From positions 1 to 44,822 of the forward strand of contig JADFLR010000032.1 in the NCBI GenBank assembly GCA_022564295.1: a stretch of 44,822 bases of DNA. The letters run 5' to 3'. Both the position numbers and the translations under genes were made by a program. This document shows, one piece after another, positions 1-19,410 of this stretch (positions within the stretch are counted from its first letter, which is position 1; each line of letters starts with the position of its first letter). The notes below the pieces were generated by a model that worked only from the letters and a program-made list of their open reading frames with translations, ran no database searches and was not told the origin of the DNA. This stretch comes from Bacteroidota bacterium. GTDB lineage: Bacteria > Bacteroidota > Ignavibacteria > Ignavibacteriales > Ignavibacteriaceae.

Positions 1-123
1 AACATAGGCTAAAGTTCCAGCGTTATTTATTGGCAGGTTAATGTTATTTATGAAATACCTGAATTCAGATTGGGCTTGTGCTGTAGCTATAAATAAAAGT
101 AAAGATAGAATAAAAGTTTTCAT
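1..123 (-). CDS. T9SS cargo protein, third tandem paralog (5' end only)
   Basis: These are the first 41 codons of a gene that leaves the window on the left. The N-terminus starts MKTFILSLLLFIATAQAQ, a typical Sec signal peptide, and matches the first 41 codons of the gene at 135..1832 exactly in DNA and protein. The ATG at 123 has GGGAGG five bases upstream and begins 11 nt after the stop of that gene, so the two are surely one transcript. It is therefore the third member of a tandem family of secreted proteins; whether its body and sorting domain match the others cannot be seen here. Confidence 0.85.
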   Translation of the reverse strand, partial: MKTFILSLLLFIATAQAQSEFRYFINNINLPINNAGTLAYV

Positions 124-127
124 TTTT
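1..127. repeat. Exact direct repeat, copy 1 (with 1710..1836)
   Basis: This block is identical base for base to 1710..1836. It covers the start codon region and the first 41 codons of two adjacent paralogous genes and continues beyond the window edge. Perfect identity at this length points to a recent duplication or gene conversion. Confidence 0.95.
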
Positions 128-134
128 TCCTCCC

Positions 135-1832
135 TTATTTTAAAACAATCATTTTCTTAGTCTCAACAAAAGAGCCAAACTTCAACTGATAAAAATAAAC
201 TCCACTTGGAAGTGAAGAAGCATTAAACTCAACTTTAAAATTTCCGCTTGGCTTTTCTTCATTTACTAATACAGCAATTTCGTTGCCCAAAATATCATAA
301 ACCTTTAGCGTTACCAATTGTTGTTCTGGAATTTGATAAGATATTATGGTTGAAGGATTAAATGGATTTGGATAATTCTGAAATAACTTAAACTCATCAA
401 CAATTAAGTTGTTTTCTTCTTCAACTGGTAAAATATTATCATCAAAATTTGATTGGTAAAATTGCTGCACGAAAGCTGATACCTCTTTACCAACAGTTAC
501 TGAGTTTAGAGGAGAATCTCCCTGTCCAATTGTGTAGCCAATAATAATTGTAATTGGTTTATTTTCTTCAAGGACAAATGGTCCGGTATGAACCAAAATC
601 CTATAATCAGCATCTATCACAGAGATCCATCCAAAATCAGTTTCAGGGTCACCGGAATACCAGTACAAAGGATTTACCTGGCTGCAATCAATACCTCCTC
701 TCACTTGTCCAAATTGCCAGGTGCAGGGGTCTATTAGCTGACCTAACTTTCCTCTTCCCAGCATATAATTTCTTGCTTCAAATTCATCATTCGGATCACC
801 GTTAATAGGATCGCTCGAAAGATAACTATTAGAAGCTGTCATAGATAAATTTTTTGCTCCCGGGAACAGTTGAATCCCTTTGAGAGGACCTTGAAAGTTG
901 TATGCAGTGTCCAATGGTGTATCTATGCTATCTTCATATGTGCCATTTGAATTATTATCAATAAATGTTTCCCCGGGAATGAATGAGTGGGGCTTCTGCA
1001 AGAAATTCATCATAAATGCGGGTGGGTTCTCACCAAATAGACCATCAGGACCCGAATTGTACGTAAATGCTGAAGATGATAATGTATCACAACCGGAGAG
1101 ATCATCTTCGTGAGCTGCTCCAATATCTGCATCCGCCCAGCTTGAGAAATAAACAGAATCTAAAGTGGAATTAACCATTCCTTTGTTTATTATTTTATAG
1201 CGGATAAACAAAACATTTTTTAATTGAGGTGCCGAACTTGATTTGTATCCAAAAACAGTTTGGTGTATTTCAATACCTAATGGAGGGACATTCTCAAATC
1301 TATTGCGGGGATAGACACCATCATTAAAAACACACCAGGCAATCTGATCTCCGATAATGTCAGGTCTGTCTTCATTGATATCCCATTCCCCATTGCCATT
1401 TAGATCAACAGGATTATAAATCCCATCATTATCTCCATCGTAAAATTCAGCCCCAATATCTACAGCGAAAGTCCATTCCTGCCAGGAACCGCCAAAGGGT
1501 TGGTCGCTCTCATTTACAACATAAATTCTATAACGTGGATCATATTGATTCGAATCAACATTACCTGGCTGATAATTCTCAATTAAAATAGACGATGCCA
1601 TTGCATTTGCCCAGAGAGTATCTGAGTTGTAACCTGATAACCAGAATCCACCTGAAAATAAAAAATTAGTGCCAAGATATAAACCCCCGGGTCCGTCTGG
1701 TGGGATGTTAACATAGGCTAAAGTTCCAGCGTTATTTATTGGCAGGTTAATGTTATTTATGAAATACCTGAATTCAGATTGGGCTTGTGCTGTAGCTATA
1801 AATAAAAGTAAAGATAGAATAAAAGTTTTCAT
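135..1832 (-). CDS. Secreted protein with T9SS type A sorting domain (tandem paralog 2)
   Basis: A 565-residue exported protein of unknown function. Residues 1-18 form a signal peptide ending AQAQ. Acidic loops such as DGDNDGIYNPVDLNGNG (about 132-148) and a similar one near 290 resemble calcium-binding thrombospondin type 3 or dockerin-like loops. From residue 484 (FQNYPNPFNP) to the C-terminal KKMIVLK is a complete type A sorting domain, so the protein should cross the outer membrane by T9SS and be anchored or released at the surface. It sits 10 nt downstream of the paralog at 1843..3540, of equal length, and 11 nt upstream of a third copy. Most of the sequence is shared with the 1843..3540 paralog, but the sorting domain is clearly different. 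No catalytic motif is recognised; a surface-structure or adhesin-like role is only a guess. Confidence 0.85.
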   Translation of the reverse strand: MKTFILSLLLFIATAQAQSEFRYFINNINLPINNAGTLAYVNIPPDGPGGLYLGTNFLFSGGFWLSGYNSDTLWANAMASSILIENYQPGNVDSNQYDPRYRIYVVNESDQPFGGSWQEWTFAVDIGAEFYDGDNDGIYNPVDLNGNGEWDINEDRPDIIGDQIAWCVFNDGVYPRNRFENVPPLGIEIHQTVFGYKSSSAPQLKNVLFIRYKIINKGMVNSTLDSVYFSSWADADIGAAHEDDLSGCDTLSSSAFTYNSGPDGLFGENPPAFMMNFLQKPHSFIPGETFIDNNSNGTYEDSIDTPLDTAYNFQGPLKGIQLFPGAKNLSMTASNSYLSSDPINGDPNDEFEARNYMLGRGKLGQLIDPCTWQFGQVRGGIDCSQVNPLYWYSGDPETDFGWISVIDADYRILVHTGPFVLEENKPITIIIGYTIGQGDSPLNSVTVGKEVSAFVQQFYQSNFDDNILPVEEENNLIVDEFKLFQNYPNPFNPSTIISYQIPEQQLVTLKVYDILGNEIAVLVNEEKPSGNFKVEFNASSLPSGVYFYQLKFGSFVETKKMIVLK

Positions 1833-1836
1833 TTTT
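1710..1836. repeat. Exact direct repeat, copy 2 (with 1..127)
   Basis: Second copy of the 127-base exact repeat, lying at the 5' end of the gene at 135..1832. Identity stops in the T-run just before the ribosome binding site: GGGAGG in copy 1, only AGG in copy 2. Confidence 0.95.
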
Positions 1837-1842
1837 CCTACA

Positions 1843-3540
1843 TTATTTTAAAAGGATCATTTTCTTGGTTTCAATGTATGAACCTGCTTTCAACTGGTAA
1901 AAATAAACTCCGCTTGCTAATCTGCTTGCATTGAAATCTATCTCGTAAATTCCTGTAGGTCGCTCTTCGTTTAATAAAGTCGTTACTTCCGCTCCAAGAA
2001 TATCATATATCTTAATTGTCACTTTTCCAGCCTGTGGTATTTGAAACTTGATTCTTGTTACCGGATTGAACGGATTTGGGTAGTTTTGAAATAACTTAAA
2101 CTCATCAACAATTAAGTTATTCTCTTCTTCAACTGGTAAAATATTATCATCAAAATTTGATTGGTAAAATTGTTGAACGAAAGCAGAAACTTCTTTACCA
2201 ACAGTTACTGAGTTTAGTGGAGAATCTCCCTGTCCAATTGTGTAACCAACAATAATTGTAATGGGTTTATCCACTTCTAAAGAAAATGGACCTGTATCTA
2301 CTAGCATTCTTTGATCTGTGGGCCCAGTATTCAGCCATCCATAATTAGTTTCCGGATCTCCAGAAAACCAGAATAGTGGATCTATCGCTTCACAAGGAAT
2401 ACCTCCAAAAACACTACTCCAGTAGTCATCACAAGGATCCATCGGTTCACCTAATTTCAACAGTCCAAGCATATAATTTCTTGCTTCAAATTCATCATTC
2501 GGATCACCCCGAATCGGATCAGATGCTATATAATGCGTAAATGCTGTCATTATTTGGTTCTTAGCTCCAGGAAATAATTGTATTCCCTTTAATGGACCCT
2601 GATGGTTGTATGCAGTATCAAGCGGCGTGTCTATACTGTCTTCATACGTTCCATTAAAATTATTATCAATAAATGTTTCTCCCGGAATATATGAGTAAGG
2701 TCCCTGTAAGAGATTTATGAAGAAAGAAGGAACTTCATCACCGAATCCAGGATCAGGATCCAAACCATATATAAATCCCGAATTCGTAAGAGTATCAGAA
2801 CCAACTAAATCATCATCAAATACAACTCCAAGATCAGCATCAGCCCAGGCAGTGAAATAAACAGAGTCTAAAAGGGAATTAACCGTTCCTTTATTAAGAA
2901 TTTTATAACGAATAAACAAAACATTTTTTAGTTGAGGTGCCGAACTTGATTTGTATCCAAAAACTGTTTGGTGTATTTCAATACCTAACGGAGGGACATT
3001 TTCAAATCTGAGCCTTGGCGTCACCCCATCATTAAAAACGCACCATGCAATCTGATCTCCGATAATATCAGGTCTGTCTTCATTAATATCCCACTCTCCA
3101 TTGCCATTTAGATCAACAGAATTATAAACGCCATCATTATCTCCATCATAAAATTCAGCTCCGATATCTACTGCGAGACTCCATTTTTGCCAGGAACCAC
3201 CAAAGGGCTGGTCGCTCTCTTTTACAACATATATTCTAAAACGTGGATCATTTTGGTTTGAATCAACATTCCCCGGCAGGTAATTCTCAATCAAGGATGC
3301 TGATGCCTGTGCATTTGCCCAGAGAGTATCACCATTGTAACCGGATAAAAAGAATCCGCCTGAAAATAAAAATTCAATACCAAGATATCTCCCTCCGCTA
3401 CCATCTGGTGGAATATTAACGGCAGCTAAAACACCGTAGTTATTTATTGGCAAGTTGATGTTGTTTATGAAAAACCTGAATTCAGATTGGGCTTGAAGAG
3501 TTGATACAAACAATAAAACCGATATAATAATAAGCTTCAT
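1843..3540 (-). CDS. Secreted protein with T9SS type A sorting domain (tandem paralog 1)
   Basis: First visible gene of the tandem cargo operon. An upstream in-frame start at 3555 is possible, but the ATG at 3540 has GGGAGG six bases upstream and directly opens the signal peptide MKLIIISVLLFVSTLQAQ, giving 565 residues, exactly the length of its neighbour. It has the same calcium-loop-like acidic segments and ends in a full sorting domain (QNYPNPFNP to KKMILLK). About 60 residues just before the sorting domain, from GYTIGQGDSP to FQNYPNPFNP, are identical to the neighbour; the sorting domain after that diverges. The function of the N-terminal body is unknown. Confidence 0.85.
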   Translation of the reverse strand: MKLIIISVLLFVSTLQAQSEFRFFINNINLPINNYGVLAAVNIPPDGSGGRYLGIEFLFSGGFFLSGYNGDTLWANAQASASLIENYLPGNVDSNQNDPRFRIYVVKESDQPFGGSWQKWSLAVDIGAEFYDGDNDGVYNSVDLNGNGEWDINEDRPDIIGDQIAWCVFNDGVTPRLRFENVPPLGIEIHQTVFGYKSSSAPQLKNVLFIRYKILNKGTVNSLLDSVYFTAWADADLGVVFDDDLVGSDTLTNSGFIYGLDPDPGFGDEVPSFFINLLQGPYSYIPGETFIDNNFNGTYEDSIDTPLDTAYNHQGPLKGIQLFPGAKNQIMTAFTHYIASDPIRGDPNDEFEARNYMLGLLKLGEPMDPCDDYWSSVFGGIPCEAIDPLFWFSGDPETNYGWLNTGPTDQRMLVDTGPFSLEVDKPITIIVGYTIGQGDSPLNSVTVGKEVSAFVQQFYQSNFDDNILPVEEENNLIVDEFKLFQNYPNPFNPVTRIKFQIPQAGKVTIKIYDILGAEVTTLLNEERPTGIYEIDFNASRLASGVYFYQLKAGSYIETKKMILLK

Positions 3541-3738: not shown

Positions 3739-4884
3739 GTGGTTATAGCTATTCCAAAAGAGATCCTCCCCGGAGAGAACAGAGTCGCTTGTGTTCCCGA
3801 TGTTGCTTCAAAGTATATCAAAGCCGGATTCGAAGTTCAAGTAGAAAGTAATGCCGGTTTGAACGCCGGATTCACTAATGAAGATTATGGAAAAGCAGGG
3901 GCAAAGGTCCTAGATAATTTGAATGACCTTTACTCATCGGCGGATATGGTTCTTAAAGTTCAACGCCCGTCAGATCATCCCGATGCAGGAAAACACGAAC
4001 TTGATTTGATGAAAAGCGGAACAATATTAATTACATTTCTTTATCCACTTCATTATTCTGATCTTGCCAAACATTGCGCTGCAAAAGGAATCAATGTTGT
4101 TTCAATGGATATGATTCCGAGAACAAGCATAGCTCAGAAGATGGATGCTTTAAGTTCGCAGGCAAACATTGCCGGTTACAAAAGTGTTATTATGACTGCA
4201 AATGAACTTGGTAAAATCTTTCCATTAATGATGACTGCGGCAGGGACAATTTCACCTGCAAGAGTTGTTATTATGGGAGCCGGTGTTGCAGGATTGCAGG
4301 CATTGGGTACTGCAAAAAGATTAGGAGCTGTTGTAGAAGTATCGGATATTCGTCCAGCAGTTAAAGAGGAAGTGCAGAGTCTCGGCGGGAGATATATTGA
4401 AGTTGAAACCGATGAAGATATGCAGGACGAAGGCGGTTATGCAAAAGAAGCTTCGGAAGAATTCTTAAAGAAACAGAAAGAACTTATCTTCAAACATATA
4501 ACTGAAGCTGATATTGTTATTACAACAGCGCTTGTTCCGGGTAAAAAAGCACCTGTACTCGTTAGCGAGGAAATGGTTAAAAATATGAAACCCGGCAGTG
4601 TAATTTTAGATATGGCTGTAGAGTTCGGTGGTAATTGCGAATTAAGCGAAAATGGTAAAACCGTTAAAAAGCATAATGTAGTAATTATCGGAGAACCAAA
4701 TCTTCCCAGTTTAGTTCCAACACACGCAAGTGAAATGTATTCAAAAAATATTTTGAATTTCGTTAATCACTTTACTAAAGAAGGTAAGTTTGAACTTGAT
4801 ATGGAAGACGAAATAATTCAGGGAGCATTAATTACTAATAACAGTGAAGTAATAAACCAGAGAATAAAAGATTTACTGCAGTAA
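3739..4884 (+). CDS. pntAA: NAD(P) transhydrogenase subunit alpha part 1 (domain I)
   Basis: Soluble NAD(H)-binding subunit of the proton-translocating transhydrogenase, which uses the proton gradient to move hydride from NADH to NADP+. It has 381 residues, close to the usual ~384 of three-subunit enzymes such as that of Rhodospirillum rubrum. Seen: the alanine dehydrogenase/PNT signature around 128-150 (IPRTSIAQKMDALSSQ) with the NAD-contacting R128, Q133 and D136 expected from that enzyme, and the Rossmann loop GAGVAGLQA at 180-188. The GTG start is chosen because GAGGAG lies eight bases upstream. It leads the operon pntAA-pntAB-pntB and is divergent from the T9SS cargo operon across ~200 bp. 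Confidence 0.96.
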   Translation: MVIAIPKEILPGENRVACVPDVASKYIKAGFEVQVESNAGLNAGFTNEDYGKAGAKVLDNLNDLYSSADMVLKVQRPSDHPDAGKHELDLMKSGTILITFLYPLHYSDLAKHCAAKGINVVSMDMIPRTSIAQKMDALSSQANIAGYKSVIMTANELGKIFPLMMTAAGTISPARVVIMGAGVAGLQALGTAKRLGAVVEVSDIRPAVKEEVQSLGGRYIEVETDEDMQDEGGYAKEASEEFLKKQKELIFKHITEADIVITTALVPGKKAPVLVSEEMVKNMKPGSVILDMAVEFGGNCELSENGKTVKKHNVVIIGEPNLPSLVPTHASEMYSKNILNFVNHFTKEGKFELDMEDEIIQGALITNNSEVINQRIKDLLQ

Positions 4885-15246: not shown

Positions 15247-17502
15247 ATGAAACCCAAATCACCTGTTGCAATTAATTCACTTTTTTTACTAACTGCTTTT
15301 TTATGTGCAAATAGTACTCTCTTTGCTCAGGGGGACAATCCCAATGTAGATGCTTTACCGTGGGAACAAATTCAGCAGATAAATTACAGTGATAATCCTT
15401 TTGCTGTTATTACTACGGCGGATGGTTTTGATAATTTTAACCTTGGTACTGATTTCGCAGAACCGCATATGGCACAAAATCCGAATGATCCGCTGCAGTA
15501 TTTTAATGCGTTTAATACTAACGGTACATGGCGTACTTCGGATGGTCACGACTGGACACATTCATTTCCATCATTTGGGTTTAATATGCGTGGTGATCCC
15601 GTAACAGCTTACGATAGTTTAGGCAATCTTTATTACGAAAATATGTACAACAGTCCTATTCTTGGCTGCAAAGTAATTGTATCAACTAATAATGGACAGA
15701 CCTGGTCAACAGCAGTAACATCAATTGCAGGTGTCGATAAGAACTGGATTGCTGCTGATCAATCTGCTGGACCATACTCGAATTATGTTTATACTACTAT
15801 GAGCATATCAGGTGGTCATAGGGTTGCTCGAAGTACCAACCTTGGAGCTACATGGACTGCTACCGGCACTTTCGGTAGTAGTTTGCGACTACCTGGGGCT
15901 ATGGTTGCCGTAGGACCGAATGTAAGTGGCGGAGATGTTCCGGGTGGTGCTGTTTATGTTGTAACACCTCATACAAGTATTTTTGCATCAATATATACAT
16001 TCCGTGTATCTACTGATGGAGGTGCTACCTGGACTATTAAATCTAATCAAGGATTTTCAGGTTATGTTGGTACAAATGTTAACAATAGACATTCAGTTCA
16101 AAATATGAGAACCCGCCCTTATCCTTTTATCTCAGTAGATAATAGTTACGGTACATACAGAGGCAGACTGTATCTTGTTTATGCTTCTAACAGTCCTGCA
16201 GGTAACGGAAACAAACCAGATATATTTTGCAGGTATTCTGATGACCAGGGAGCAACGTGGTCTTCTGCAGTAACAGTAAATGATGATGTTAATTCTCAGA
16301 ATCATAATCAATGGCATCCATCAATCTGGAACGATAAACAAACAGGCAAATTGTTTGTTAAATGGATGGATACACGAGATACACCGACAAGCGATAGCGC
16401 TTATATTTATGCATCATACTCCGAAGACGGTGGGCAAACATTCTTAACCAACCAGAGAATTTCAAACTCAAAGATGAGAATTAATTGTTCTAGTTGCGGC
16501 GGCGGCGGAACCCCTCGTTACCAAGGTGATTATGATGCAATCGTTTCCATGGATGGACAGGCACTTGCTGTATGGACAGATTTCCGGAGTGGAACCTTCG
16601 GCAGTTATGTTGGTTATTTTCCGGATTTTGCAATGCTTGTGTCACCATCCTTTATTCCAATAATTACGACTGGTGGTACTGCTTTTGTAACAATAGATGT
16701 TCCTGATGTAAAACTCTATTCTCAGGATGCAATATTTTCTGCAACCGTAACTCCCACACCTTCAAACGGTACAATAATCCTTGACTTTCCGTCGGGTAAT
16801 ACTTTAAATACATTTCCCGGCAGCGTTGATTTAAGAATTAGAACAGTAAATAATGTAACTTTAGGTACTTATACTATCAACATCCAGGGAGAAGGACCTA
16901 ATGGAACACCTGTTCATAGAAGAACTGTAACTATGGATGTTATTATTCCTGTCGAATTAACTTCCTTTTCAGCTCTAACTAATGCTAATGATGTAATACT
17001 AAATTGGCAAACCGCAACGGAAATAAATAATCAGGGATTCGAAATTCAAAGAAGCAGTGATGGTGAGTTTGAAAAAATAGGATTTGTTCCCGGTCACGGT
17101 ACAACAACCGAAACTCAATCTTATATTTTTATTGATGAGAATGTTTTACCGGGAGAATATTCTTACCGCTTAAAGCAAATGGATTATGACGGTACAACAG
17201 AATATTCAAACATTGTAGAAATAGATGTTACACAACCGATTGAATATAGTTTAAGTCAAAATTATCCGAATCCGTTTAATCCAAGTACAACAATTTCATA
17301 CTCAATTTCTAAAGATGGATTGGTAACACTAAAGGTTTACGATATACTTGGGAAAGAAGTATTAACGCTAATAAATGAAGTACAATCAGCGGGCACAAAG
17401 AACATAACATTTGATGCAAGTGAGCTATCAAGCGGAGTTTATTACTATCAGCTTGTATCGGGTGAATTTACATCAATTAAAAAATTAATTTTGATGAAGT
17501 GA
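15247..17502 (+). CDS. Secreted Asp-box (sialidase-like fold) protein with T9SS sorting domain
   Basis: A 751-residue exported protein. A signal peptide ends LFAQ (about 28). Residues 60-460 hold six Asp-box-like turns (SDGHDWT, TNNGQTWS, TNLGATWT, TDGGATWT, DDQGATWS, EDGGQTF), the sign of a sialidase/BNR beta-propeller. A beta-sandwich follows, then a fibronectin-like domain (VELTSFSA to EYSNIVEIDV) that commonly precedes sorting domains, then a complete type A sorting domain (QNYPNPFNP to KKLILMK). The propeller may be an exo-glycosidase or only a binding scaffold; the arginine triad of true sialidases was not established. TAGGAG precedes the ATG, and a good terminator follows. Confidence 0.85.
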   Translation: MKPKSPVAINSLFLLTAFLCANSTLFAQGDNPNVDALPWEQIQQINYSDNPFAVITTADGFDNFNLGTDFAEPHMAQNPNDPLQYFNAFNTNGTWRTSDGHDWTHSFPSFGFNMRGDPVTAYDSLGNLYYENMYNSPILGCKVIVSTNNGQTWSTAVTSIAGVDKNWIAADQSAGPYSNYVYTTMSISGGHRVARSTNLGATWTATGTFGSSLRLPGAMVAVGPNVSGGDVPGGAVYVVTPHTSIFASIYTFRVSTDGGATWTIKSNQGFSGYVGTNVNNRHSVQNMRTRPYPFISVDNSYGTYRGRLYLVYASNSPAGNGNKPDIFCRYSDDQGATWSSAVTVNDDVNSQNHNQWHPSIWNDKQTGKLFVKWMDTRDTPTSDSAYIYASYSEDGGQTFLTNQRISNSKMRINCSSCGGGGTPRYQGDYDAIVSMDGQALAVWTDFRSGTFGSYVGYFPDFAMLVSPSFIPIITTGGTAFVTIDVPDVKLYSQDAIFSATVTPTPSNGTIILDFPSGNTLNTFPGSVDLRIRTVNNVTLGTYTINIQGEGPNGTPVHRRTVTMDVIIPVELTSFSALTNANDVILNWQTATEINNQGFEIQRSSDGEFEKIGFVPGHGTTTETQSYIFIDENVLPGEYSYRLKQMDYDGTTEYSNIVEIDVTQPIEYSLSQNYPNPFNPSTTISYSISKDGLVTLKVYDILGKEVLTLINEVQSAGTKNITFDASELSSGVYYYQLVSGEFTSIKKLILMK

Positions 17503-17522
17503 TTGTGTTATCCTAAATCAGA

Positions 17523-17547
17523 AGGGAGCTTTGGCTCCCTTTTTTTA
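17523..17547 (+). terminator. Intrinsic terminator
   Basis: AGGGAGC-tttg-GCTCCCT, a 7-bp perfect stem with a four-base loop, ends in seven T residues 21 nt after the stop of the Asp-box gene. Confidence 0.92.
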
Positions 17548-17605
17548 TATGATTAATGAGCTTTTTATATGCAATATTTATCTAAAAATTAAATATACAA
17601 TTCCG

Positions 17606-17656
17606 GCCTCACCCTTAAGTCCCCCTCCTTACCAAGGAGAGGGACAGAGGGAGAGG
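17606..17656. repeat. C-rich/G-rich palindromic dispersed element
   Basis: A GC-rich, strand-asymmetric block, C-rich on the left (ACCCTTAAGTCCCCCTCC) and G-rich on the right (AGGAGAGGGACAGAGGGAG), stands out from its AT-rich surroundings. It resembles the REP-like elements that read as SPLSPPPYQGEG-type peptides when translated in many genomes. It lies exactly where the first part of a sorting domain should be. Confidence 0.6.
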
Positions 17657-17863
17657 TTTGTAACATTAATAGTTTACGACGTTTTGGGAAATGAAGTTTC
17701 AACTCTTGTCAATAAAGATCAGGATACCAGAAATTATGAGATAGTATTTGATGCATCTATACTTAAATGCGGAGTTTACTACTTTCAGTTAATTGCTGGT
17801 AATCCTTCGACGGGCTCAGGACAAGGTTTTGTTGAGACGAGGAAGATGATTCTTCTTCGTTAA
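17657..17863 (+). pseudogene. Broken T9SS sorting-domain remnant
   Basis: Translation gives VTLIVYDVLGNEVSTLV and, further on, GVYYFQL and ETRKMILLR, the last two thirds of a type A sorting domain ending in a proper stop. The first third (QNYPNPFNPSTTI) and any cargo protein are missing; in their place is the palindromic element at 17606..17656, and upstream is the terminator of the previous gene. An open frame runs on to 17531, but its apparent start is inside that terminator, so translation is unlikely. A second short palindromic insert adds NPSTGSGQG between QLIAG and FVETR. It is probably the tail of a deleted cargo gene. Confidence 0.75.
17803..17826. repeat. Short palindromic repeat inserted in frame (PSTGSGQ type)
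   Basis: CCTTCGACGGGCTCAGGA is of the CTTCGAC..GCTCAGG class of dispersed repeats that insert into coding regions and translate to STGSGQ-like peptides. Here it splits the conserved QL.AG-F(V/I)ETKK segment of the sorting domain. Confidence 0.6.
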
Positions 17864-17931: not shown

Positions 17932-19410
17932 GTGTTAGTTAAATTAAATCGAATTGCCGTGATAGTCACTTTAATCTATATAACTATAATATCATCTATT
18001 ACGTCTTTTATATATCCTCAAGAATATTTTATATCAAGTAGAAATAATAAATTCTATCAAGGTAACTCTGAATTTTATTTTTTAGGTTTTGGTGTTTATT
18101 ACTTGCAATGGATGGCAGCTGATGCATCCACTAAGTATATAGTTGATGATGTATTTAGAGTAGCTCATGATATTGGAGTTAAAGTAATAAGGACCTGGGC
18201 TTTTCATTCTAATTCAGATTCCACTAATCAATCAGTAATAAGGAATAAACCTTATAAGATAATGGAAAGTGGACTAAAGGCTCTAGACTATGTTGTTTAT
18301 AAAGCTAAACAGTATGATATGAAATTGGTTTTAGCATTGGAAAATAATTTCAGTGATTTTGGAGGGATAAAGCAATACATTGATTGGGCAAATCAGACAC
18401 TTACACCAATAACAGGCAAAGATTATAAACATAATGATTTTTTTATTGATGACTCTATAAAGAGTTGGTATAAATATTACGTTAATACGATACTGAATCG
18501 AGAAAATGTTTATACTTCAAACAGATATATAGATGAGCCTATTATTTTCAGTTTTGAATTAATTAACGAGGCGTCTAATACGGTCTTTGATGTTAATATT
18601 GTAAAAGAATGGTATCGGGAAATGGCTGATTACTTTAAATCTATCGATAGTAACCACTTGCTTACTACTGGAGAGATTGGTTATGATATTCATAGGGATT
18701 ATTATTCAGATTGGGATTTTTTTTACAACAGTTCGCAGTTCTTATTTAATGGATATAAGGGAACAAGTTTTGTTGAAAACACTTCTTTGGAGAAAATTGA
18801 TTATTCCTCATTTCATCTATATCCAGACGCTTGGGGATTTGAACCATTAGCAGGTAATACATGGATAAATGATCATGTAGATATTACAAACAATTTTGAT
18901 AAACCGGCTCTTTTGGGTGAGTTTGGAGTTATAAACGATAAAGTTGAAAATTATAAAATTTATTTTGATACAATAAGGAATACCCCATCTAAGTCAACAA
19001 TAATTTGGAATTATTTGCATCCTGATTTGATGCATATTGCTGATAAGTATGCTTTTAATGAGGTTCAAAATCCCGATCTTGTCGAACTATTTAAAGAACA
19101 TATTCAACTCTCCGAAAAAGAATCCGTAATATCGAATACTGCTAATTATATTCTTTACCAGAACTACCCCAATCCTTTCAATCCTACAACAACGATCCAG
19201 TTCAGTCTATTAAAAGAGCAATATATAAAAATAGAGCTCTTTAATAGTCTAGGTCAATCAATTAAAGTTTTAGAAGAAGGAGTTAAAGACGCGGGTAACT
19301 ATAAACTGTTTCTTTCATTCGAAAATTATTTGCTTCCAAGTGGAATATATTTCTATCGATTACTAGCAGGAGACTTCATTGAGACTAAGAAAATGATCCT
19401 CCTTCGTTAA
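17932..19410 (+). CDS. GH5 family endo-beta-mannanase with T9SS sorting domain
   Basis: A 492-residue secreted glycoside hydrolase, probably an endo-1,4-beta-mannanase of the GH5_7 kind. An N-terminal hydrophobic segment (about 8-30) acts as signal peptide. The TIM barrel opens with the substrate-side FYFLGFGVYYLQWMA (about 47-61) and VIRTWAF; the acid/base is E213 in FELINEAS and the nucleophile E330 in LLGEFGV. Residues from about 410 form the sorting domain (QNYPNPFNPTTT to KKMILLR). It would hydrolyse mannan outside the cell. The start is GTG without a clear ribosome binding site, and the leader is a copy of the 40-bp repeat that also follows the gene, so its present 5' end may come from a rearrangement. 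The gene is markedly AT-rich. Confidence 0.85.
   Translation: MLVKLNRIAVIVTLIYITIISSITSFIYPQEYFISSRNNKFYQGNSEFYFLGFGVYYLQWMAADASTKYIVDDVFRVAHDIGVKVIRTWAFHSNSDSTNQSVIRNKPYKIMESGLKALDYVVYKAKQYDMKLVLALENNFSDFGGIKQYIDWANQTLTPITGKDYKHNDFFIDDSIKSWYKYYVNTILNRENVYTSNRYIDEPIIFSFELINEASNTVFDVNIVKEWYREMADYFKSIDSNHLLTTGEIGYDIHRDYYSDWDFFYNSSQFLFNGYKGTSFVENTSLEKIDYSSFHLYPDAWGFEPLAGNTWINDHVDITNNFDKPALLGEFGVINDKVENYKIYFDTIRNTPSKSTIIWNYLHPDLMHIADKYAFNEVQNPDLVELFKEHIQLSEKESVISNTANYILYQNYPNPFNPTTTIQFSLLKEQYIKIELFNSLGQSIKVLEEGVKDAGNYKLFLSFENYLLPSGIYFYRLLAGDFIETKKMILLR

What the first reader, a model, noticed from the sequence alone, without database searches (positions are those of the whole stretch)
1..3540. 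Expanding tandem array of T9SS cargo genes
Three consecutive paralogous genes with signal peptides are spaced 10-11 nt apart; two share a 127-base exact repeat over their 5' ends. Both complete proteins have 565 residues with acidic, calcium-loop-like segments. Seen directly: identity, spacing, domain ends. Inference: a surface protein family still multiplying by unequal crossover.
Basis: partly seen in the sequence, partly recalled or inferred. Interest (0 to 1): 0.5.

Follow-up and report, generated by a model that had tools for sequence, protein, structure and literature searches.

The report
Tandem mosaic secreted surface-protein genes
A bacterium that appears to belong to the Ignavibacteria carries a short row of related genes for secreted surface proteins that seem to have swapped pieces with each other; the exact 127-base repeat that drew attention owes its length to the genome assembly software, although a third gene copy very probably does continue on another contig.

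Summary
Two complete 565-codon paralogues and the first 41 codons of a third lie head-to-tail, 10 and 11 nt apart. The exact repeat is 127 nt, but 127 is evidently the assembler's word size: 11 of 11 joinable contig-end overlaps of 18 nt or more in this assembly are exactly 127 nt. The shared tract is therefore at least 127 nt; its true length is unknown.

The third gene is very probably real. Contig C38 begins inside a paralogue beside an agmatine-deiminase-like gene, and that gene and pntA (next to the window's genes) are neighbours in related genomes. So the array holds at least three genes.

"Still multiplying by unequal crossover" is not what the sequence shows. Identity is patchy: 64-82% in the core, 92-96% in a strand-helix-linker block, 63-74% in the sorting domain, which suggests segment exchange among older copies. 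The passenger is predicted to be a beta-sandwich domain like the N-terminal domains of GH15/65/94/116-type enzymes (Z about 18), without their catalytic part; a surface glycan-binding or structural role is inferred. New member of a known kind; modest interest.

The parts
1843..3540 (-). gene 1: complete cargo gene, 565 aa, signal peptide (by eye) - passenger - linker - type A sorting domain
135..1832 (-). gene 2: complete paralogue, 565 aa, 76% protein identity to gene 1
1..123 (-). gene 3: first 41 codons, cut by the contig end; very probably continues (after a 398-nt gap if there are three copies) on contig C38 positions 1-1219
1..127 (.). copy A of the 127-nt exact repeat; 127 is evidently the assembler's word length
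1710..1836 (.). copy B of the 127-nt exact repeat
1213..1311 (.). 99 nt of gene 2 identical to the first 99 nt of contig C38 (opposite strand)
1833..1842 (-). 10-nt spacer between genes 1 and 2, TGTAGGAAAA
124..134 (-). 11-nt spacer between genes 2 and 3, GGGAGGAAAAA
3061..3153 (-). gene 1 acidic, calcium-loop-like segment (residues 130-160), rich in invariant columns
   Evidence: calcium binding is inference
1353..1445 (-). gene 2 acidic, calcium-loop-like segment (residues 130-160)
   Evidence: calcium binding is inference
2080..2256 (-). gene 1 homogenised block (residues 429-487: last strands, helix, low-confidence linker), 92-96% DNA identity among the three copies
372..548 (-). gene 2 homogenised block (residues 429-487)
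1855..2082 (-). gene 1 type A sorting domain (TIGR04183)
144..374 (-). gene 2 type A sorting domain (TIGR04183)
3739..4884 (+). NAD(P) transhydrogenase alpha subunit gene (pntA-type), right flank of the array and synteny anchor

Best explanation
This is a tandem array of at least three paralogous genes for secreted surface proteins, sitting between an agmatine-deiminase-like gene (here called aguA, on contig C38) and a pntA-type gene (in the window). Shown: the genes, their spacing, the sorting domains, T9SS genes in the genome, the synteny in relatives, and the patchy similarity. Inferred: the copies arose by tandem duplication and then exchanged segments by homologous recombination (gene conversion or crossover) - in the 5' half of gene 3 (like gene 2), in the strand-helix-linker block of all three, and in the sorting domains. 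The exact figure 127 nt is only the assembler's word length. Inferred function: the protein is exported by Sec, moved across the outer membrane by the T9SS with removal of the C-terminal domain, and displayed on the surface, where its beta-sandwich domain, which resembles the N-terminal domains of GH15/65/94/116-type enzymes, most likely binds or organises glycans. These genes lack the catalytic part of such enzymes. The sub-claims differ in strength (my estimates): word length 0.95, three or more genes between aguA and pntA 0.9, segment exchange 0.8, glycan role 0.45.
For: Word length: 11 of 11 joinable contig-end overlaps of 18 nt or more are exactly 127 nt, among 110 readable ends (118 minus 8 all-N); 127 is stated to be the largest k in SPAdes, and contig-end overlaps a product of SPAdes (PMC5481147, passages). 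Third gene: C38 2-1216 encodes residues 175-565 of a paralogue with 81% protein identity to gene 1; its first 99 nt equal gene 2; it is next to aguA. aguA and pntA lie 137 nt apart in G005 and in G001 (where the adjoining aguA is a fragment), and flank one other sorting-domain gene in G004 and G006. Mosaic: at 274 informative sites C38 sides with gene 1 or gene 2 in 77 runs against 125.1 +- 7.4 shuffled, 0 of 10,000 as low; same codon given same residue for gene 1 vs 2 is 46/58 in the block and 77/140 in the core (Fisher p 0.0013; gene 2 vs C38 p 0.0001; gene 1 vs C38 p 0.026). The block is 47-69% identical to other family genes in the 7 pairs computed and part of it is modelled with very low confidence, as disordered linkers are, so constraint alone is a poor explanation. 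Sorting-domain exchange: C38's sorting domain is 87% identical over 198 nt to that of a gene on C7 that is not a match of this family, and 78% over 179 nt to gene 2's. Fold: passenger model pLDDT 85.0, pTM 0.88, best Z 18.3 over 246 residues, rmsd 3.2.
Against: C38 ends 28 nt short of where a simple 127-nt word break against gene 2 would put it (99 shared nt, not 127) and C38's start joins no other contig end, so another copy or a strain variant may lie between C38 and C34, or that end has another cause. No reads were available, so strain mixture is not excluded. Genes 1 and 2 are also fairly similar (84%) in residues 43-173, so the block is not the only similar part. Runs and Fisher tests treat sites as independent. 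Several of the five models behind each prediction were weaker (best 85.0, worst 71.4 mean pLDDT). Fold matches are at 4-13% sequence identity, Foldseek E-values are only about 5e-4, and the list also holds the periplasmic domain of YidC and galactose mutarotases, so the fold does not by itself show glycan binding. No relative with a solved structure was found by sequence.
Confidence: 0.74

Rival explanations
1. Recent expansion by unequal crossover: the array is gaining and losing whole units now.
For: Constant unit length (spacing 1708-1709 nt), 10/11-nt spacers, and exact identity over the 5' ends of genes 2 and 3. Two neighbouring copies in G018 are 70-96% identical in 40-codon windows, so younger duplications exist in relatives.
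Against: Genes 1 and 2 differ at 25% of DNA positions; identity changes sharply within genes, which whole-unit crossover alone does not produce.
Confidence: 0.15
2. Assembly artefact or strain mixture: the third gene start is a chimera or comes from a second strain.
For: The repeat begins exactly at the contig end and has exactly the assembler's word length; C38 has no word overlap with C34.
Against: What follows the repeat differs in the two places, so two contexts existed in the reads; C38 supplies a third 3' end with the expected neighbour; the contamination estimate is 0.24.
Confidence: 0.08
3. The patchy identity reflects protein constraint rather than exchange: the conserved blocks are simply under stronger selection.
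For: Much of the family's invariant sequence lies in one region, and genes 1 and 2 are 84% identical there in DNA (residues 43-173).
Against: The most homogenised block (residues 429-487) is only 47-69% identical in DNA to other family members and includes a linker modelled with very low confidence; codon choice is also shared there.
Confidence: 0.12
4. The proteins are enzymes or parts of enzymes rather than glycan-binding surface proteins.
For: Most of the best fold matches are parts of carbohydrate-active enzymes.
Against: The 565-residue proteins end in a linker and a sorting domain; nothing in them corresponds to the catalytic helical barrel of those enzymes (barrel recalled).
Confidence: 0.12

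Closest known systems
T9SS type A sorting-domain cargo proteins (TIGR04183 / PF18962)
   Same: C-terminal type A domain above cut-off in both complete genes and in the C38 gene; SprA and PorU genes in the same genome
   Different: The passenger matched no Pfam or NCBIfam family; the families found match the sorting-domain end only
P. gingivalis gingipain/haemagglutinin domain rearrangement and allelic exchange (PMC5266723; passages read)
   Same: T9SS surface proteins reported to be diversified by recombination of modules
   Different: There it was compared between strains of one species (21 in the passage seen); here it is inferred from three paralogues in one genome, with an unrelated passenger
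N-terminal beta-sandwich domains of GH15, GH65, GH94 and GH116 enzymes (for example 1ug9, 7fe3, 6gh3, 5npf; family numbers partly recalled)
   Same: Predicted fold including the C-terminal helix: Z 15.8-18.1 over 221-260 residues for these four
   Different: Stand-alone with a sorting domain, no catalytic part in the 565-aa form; adds a conserved acidic loop

Membership tests
T9SS type A cargo | C-terminal type A sorting domain above the curated cut-off | tested here: met
   48.9 and 46.5 bits against cut-off 23; C38 gene 36.2 bits
T9SS type A cargo | N-terminal Sec signal peptide | tested here: inconclusive
   Read by eye (Lys, hydrophobic run, A-x-A or Q-A before Q); no predictor run
T9SS type A cargo | T9SS translocon and sortase in the genome | tested here: met
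   SprA 957.5 bits; PorU 953.2 bits
T9SS type A cargo | Secretion, removal of the sorting domain, surface display | not testable with these tools
   Needs cells or proteomics
Array growing by unequal crossover | Constant unit and spacing | tested here: met
   Spacing 1708-1709 nt; spacers 10 and 11 nt
Array growing by unequal crossover | Similar identity along the whole unit | tested here: not met
   64-82% in the core, 92-96% in the block, 63-74% in the sorting domain; genes 1-2 also 74% in residues 1-42 and 84% in 43-173
Array growing by unequal crossover | Copy-number variation between strains | not tested
   No reads or second strain of this species were available
Gene conversion / mosaic paralogues | Clustered switches of nearest relative along the gene, silent sites included | tested here: met
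   77 runs vs 125.1 +- 7.4, 0 of 10,000; codon sharing; sites treated as independent
GH15/65/94/116-type enzymes | N-terminal beta-sandwich domain | tested here: met
   Z 18.3, 246 residues, rmsd 3.2 on a predicted model; similarity of fold only
GH15/65/94/116-type enzymes | Catalytic helical barrel after that domain | tested here: not met
   The protein continues with a linker and the sorting domain and ends at 565 aa

The most novel reading that the evidence does not exclude
In these bacteria the many sorting-domain genes (150 of 150 scored matches above cut-off in this genome, out of 217 candidates) and the near-identical linker next to the sorting domain act as recombination handles: passengers and sorting domains are exchanged between tandem and dispersed cargo genes, and fixed chromosomal intervals such as aguA-pntA serve as slots in which different cargo genes are swapped in and out between species. 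This would be a general diversification system for T9SS surface proteins in Ignavibacteria.
Probability: 0.2. Interest if true: 0.6.

Novelty: new member of a known kind. Interest (0 to 1): 0.32.

Why it matters
This genome carries a very large set of T9SS sorting-domain genes. A predicted fold for one passenger family that has no Pfam or NCBIfam entry here, and signs that its genes trade segments and sorting domains, give a testable route into how such a surface repertoire evolves. The word-length check is also a practical warning: an exact repeat at a contig end whose length equals the assembler's k says only 'at least k'.

Tried and rejected
A direct 127-nt word overlap between C38 and C34 was looked for and not found (99 nt shared); adjacency therefore rests on synteny and on C38's paralogue. 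Sequence search of solved structures with the family profile: no match at E 0.1 or below. Pfam scan of the 11 members: only sorting-domain families. The 3D searches were limited to solved structures; the viral library was not searched. The tree placed gene 1 with C38 (100/99) and gene 2 next (100/97), but C38 is partial and the genes are mosaic, so it mostly reports the core; it is not used for the order of duplication. In one search the second half of the output was cut; only the pairwise table at its top is used.

Papers: 'type IX secretion' with 'gene conversion' gave 5 (one read in passages); Ignavibacteria with T9SS and C-terminal domain gave 2 (one read in passages); palindromic element terms gave 1, Melioribacter with T9SS gave 3, 'supersandwich' terms gave 0, SPAdes contig-end terms gave 24 of which 8 were listed (one read in passages). 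The rest were seen as listings with the start of the abstract. None of these listings names this family; nothing wider is claimed.

The aguA and aguB models scored below their curated cut-offs (253 of 382 and 319 of 410 bits), so those names are approximate; Pfam calls the first a PAD_porph deiminase. An earlier guess that the cargo gene at 17932-19410 is a GH5 enzyme was not borne out (only its sorting domain matched) and is dropped. 'Beta-supersandwich', 'helical barrel' and some GH family numbers are recalled.
Full report
What is there. The window is the whole contig C34 (44,822 nt) of a 4.07-Mb, 59-contig genome rated 100 complete and 0.24 contaminated. Of nine named loci found with the passenger, five are titled Ignavibacteriales or Ignavibacteriaceae, two Ignavibacteria and two Bacteroidetes; the genome itself is unnamed. 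On the minus strand lie gene 1 (1843-3540), gene 2 (135-1832), both 565 aa, and the first 41 codons of gene 3 (1-123). The spacers are 10 and 11 nt. The exact repeat 1-127 / 1710-1836 is there and is 127 nt long.

Why 127. I took 600 nt from both ends of all 59 contigs (115 stretches, the start of C38, both ends of C34 from the window). Eight of the 118 ends are all N and were left out. Among the other 110, 11 pairs of ends can be joined by an exact overlap of 18 nt or more, and 11 of 11 overlaps are exactly 127 nt; two further pairs share the same terminal 127 nt. [quoted passage not shown] So the repeat at the start of C34 is a lower bound, not a length. It still means that two different continuations of this word existed in the data (TCCTCCC and CCTACAT), hence a third gene start, or a second strain.

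The third gene. In the own genome C38 positions 2-1216 encode residues 175-565 of a paralogue with 81% protein identity to gene 1, starting at the very end of the contig. The first 99 nt of C38 equal window 1213-1311 in gene 2. Beyond it C38 carries a gene of the agmatine deiminase / PAD_porph type, an N-carbamoylputrescine amidase-like gene and a repeat protein. In 25 genomes searched (own included), the pntA-type gene and the deiminase-like gene lie on one contig within 5 kb and in the same orientation in 5: G001, G004, G005, G006, G009. In G001 the adjoining deiminase is a fragment (residues 193-343), the rest of it lying elsewhere on the contig. The interval is 137 nt in G001 and G005, holds one other sorting-domain gene of the BNR/Vps10-like kind in G004 and G006, and a TonB receptor and an EamA transporter gene in G009. 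G002 has a family gene cut by the contig end beside pntA in the same arrangement, its deiminase being cut by the end of another contig. In the other 19 genomes (own included) one or both genes are missing or partial, more than 100 kb apart, or on separate contigs; in the own genome they are at the ends of C34 and C38. So C38 and C34 are very probably neighbours, and the array lies between the two genes. If gene 3 is the C38 gene, 398 nt of it are missing from the assembly. Against the simplest joining, C38 stops 28 nt before the point expected for a 127-nt word break, so a further copy or a variant is possible.

Mosaic structure. Comparing genes 1, 2 and C38 by codons: genes 1 and 2 are 74% identical in residues 1-42 and 84% in 43-173 (C38 has no sequence there); in residues 174-209 gene 2 and C38 share 102 of 105 nt; in the core (210-428) C38 is 82% identical to gene 1 but 64% to gene 2, and genes 1 and 2 are 67%; in residues 429-487 all three pairs are 92-96%; from 488 on they are 64% (1-2), 63% (1-C38) and 74% (2-C38). 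At 274 sites where genes 1 and 2 differ and C38 matches one, the matches fall in 77 runs against 125.1 +- 7.4 in shuffles (0 of 10,000). The block 429-487 is 47-69% identical to four other family genes in the 7 pairs computed, and residues 465-492 are modelled with pLDDT under 50, so conservation alone is unlikely to explain 92-96% DNA identity. C38's sorting domain is closest to that of a gene on C7 (87% over 198 nt) and shares with it an in-frame palindromic insert; gene 1's is closest to that of a C19 family gene (72% over 169 nt) (compared with the window and 58 partly overlapping loci held, not with every sorting domain of the genome). A tandem trio in G018 shows a related pattern: copy 3 is 42-64% identical to copies 1 and 2 up to column 520 but 77-82% in columns 521-560 of the sorting domain.

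The family. With the gene 1 passenger, 39 of 41 genomes (own plus 40 relatives) had a match at E 0.001; by my count of the listing 22 of 41 had one at E 1e-79 or better. With a family profile, 13 of 198 genomes drawn from the phylum, own included, had a match at E 1e-50. The own genome has 10 matches (8 of them shown), one a fragment with a stop on C7. Forms seen: 565-610 aa like the window's, about 1,000 aa with an N-terminal extension, and about 1,100-1,230 aa.

Structure. The full-length model of gene 1 has pLDDT 76.7 and pTM 0.74; the passenger alone, 12 sequences, has 85.0 and 0.88. Foldseek's best matches for the passenger are laminaribiose and other phosphorylases (E about 5e-4), and further down the periplasmic domain of YidC and galactose mutarotases. 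The second look ranks dextran dextrinase, glucodextranase, exo-arabinanase and GH116 glucosidase chains highest, Z 17.5-18.3 over 227-266 residues at 7-9% identity. The matched ranges lie towards the N-terminal side of those chains (for example 21-256 of 1ug9, 71-388 of 5npf), which by recalled knowledge is the beta-sandwich domain and the following helix, not the catalytic barrel. The 565-aa proteins go straight from that helix into the linker and sorting domain.

How it most likely works. Step 1, shown by domains only: export by Sec and T9SS. Step 2, inferred: signal-peptide cleavage before a glutamine, as reported for most signal peptidase I substrates of Bacteroidetes, with a predicted value of 77% for Ignavibacterium album (PMC5837995, passages). 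Step 3, inferred: surface display of a sandwich domain that binds or arranges glycans. Step 4, inferred: tandem copies diverge in the core and are re-homogenised elsewhere by recombination, giving several versions of one surface protein.

Verdict. P. gingivalis offers a precedent for recombination among T9SS surface proteins (PMC5266723, passages). I rate it a new member of a known kind, interest 0.32.

Noticed in passing
window 17500-17860, + strand: An orphan, decayed sorting-domain-like frame with no passenger, between a sorting-domain gene (15247-17502) and another cargo gene (17932-19410). It is 78% identical to the C38 sorting domain over 195 nt and carries the same palindromic insert, but matched no NCBIfam model at 1e-5.
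   Followed up: partly
window 17621-17643; L051 1001-1023; L216, L217, L219: A dispersed palindrome (core CCCTCTCCTTNNNAAGGAGAGGG, up to 2 mismatches) occurs at 5 sites in this genome; 4 of the 5 lie in frame in the same loop of sorting domains or of the orphan one (reading SPLNPSPYQGEGQRER or close to it). It was found in 18 of 25 genomes, own included; in 2 of 9 relatives' loci read it was in frame in a sorting domain.
   Followed up: partly
aguA-pntA interval: window left end, L221, L222, L223, L224, L225, L227: The same chromosomal interval is empty in two genomes (in one the aguA side is a fragment), holds another sorting-domain gene in two, other genes in one, and this family in two: a variable slot.
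   Followed up: partly
L051 1250-1330: A hairpin-forming, repeat-like sequence (CGTCATTGCGAG...) lies between the C38 cargo gene and aguA; folding is only mildly better than shuffles (z -1.9, 8 of 200 as good); no exact second copy in the 242 loci held.
   Followed up: partly
G000 C7:7936-8463 and C19:77523-79217: Two other family members look damaged: a fragment with an in-frame TGA, and a gene with a TAG inside its sorting domain.
   Followed up: no
window 3490-3540 and 1782-1832: Both signal peptides would be cut before a glutamine, in line with the Q-rule reported for Bacteroidetes; judged by eye.
   Followed up: no
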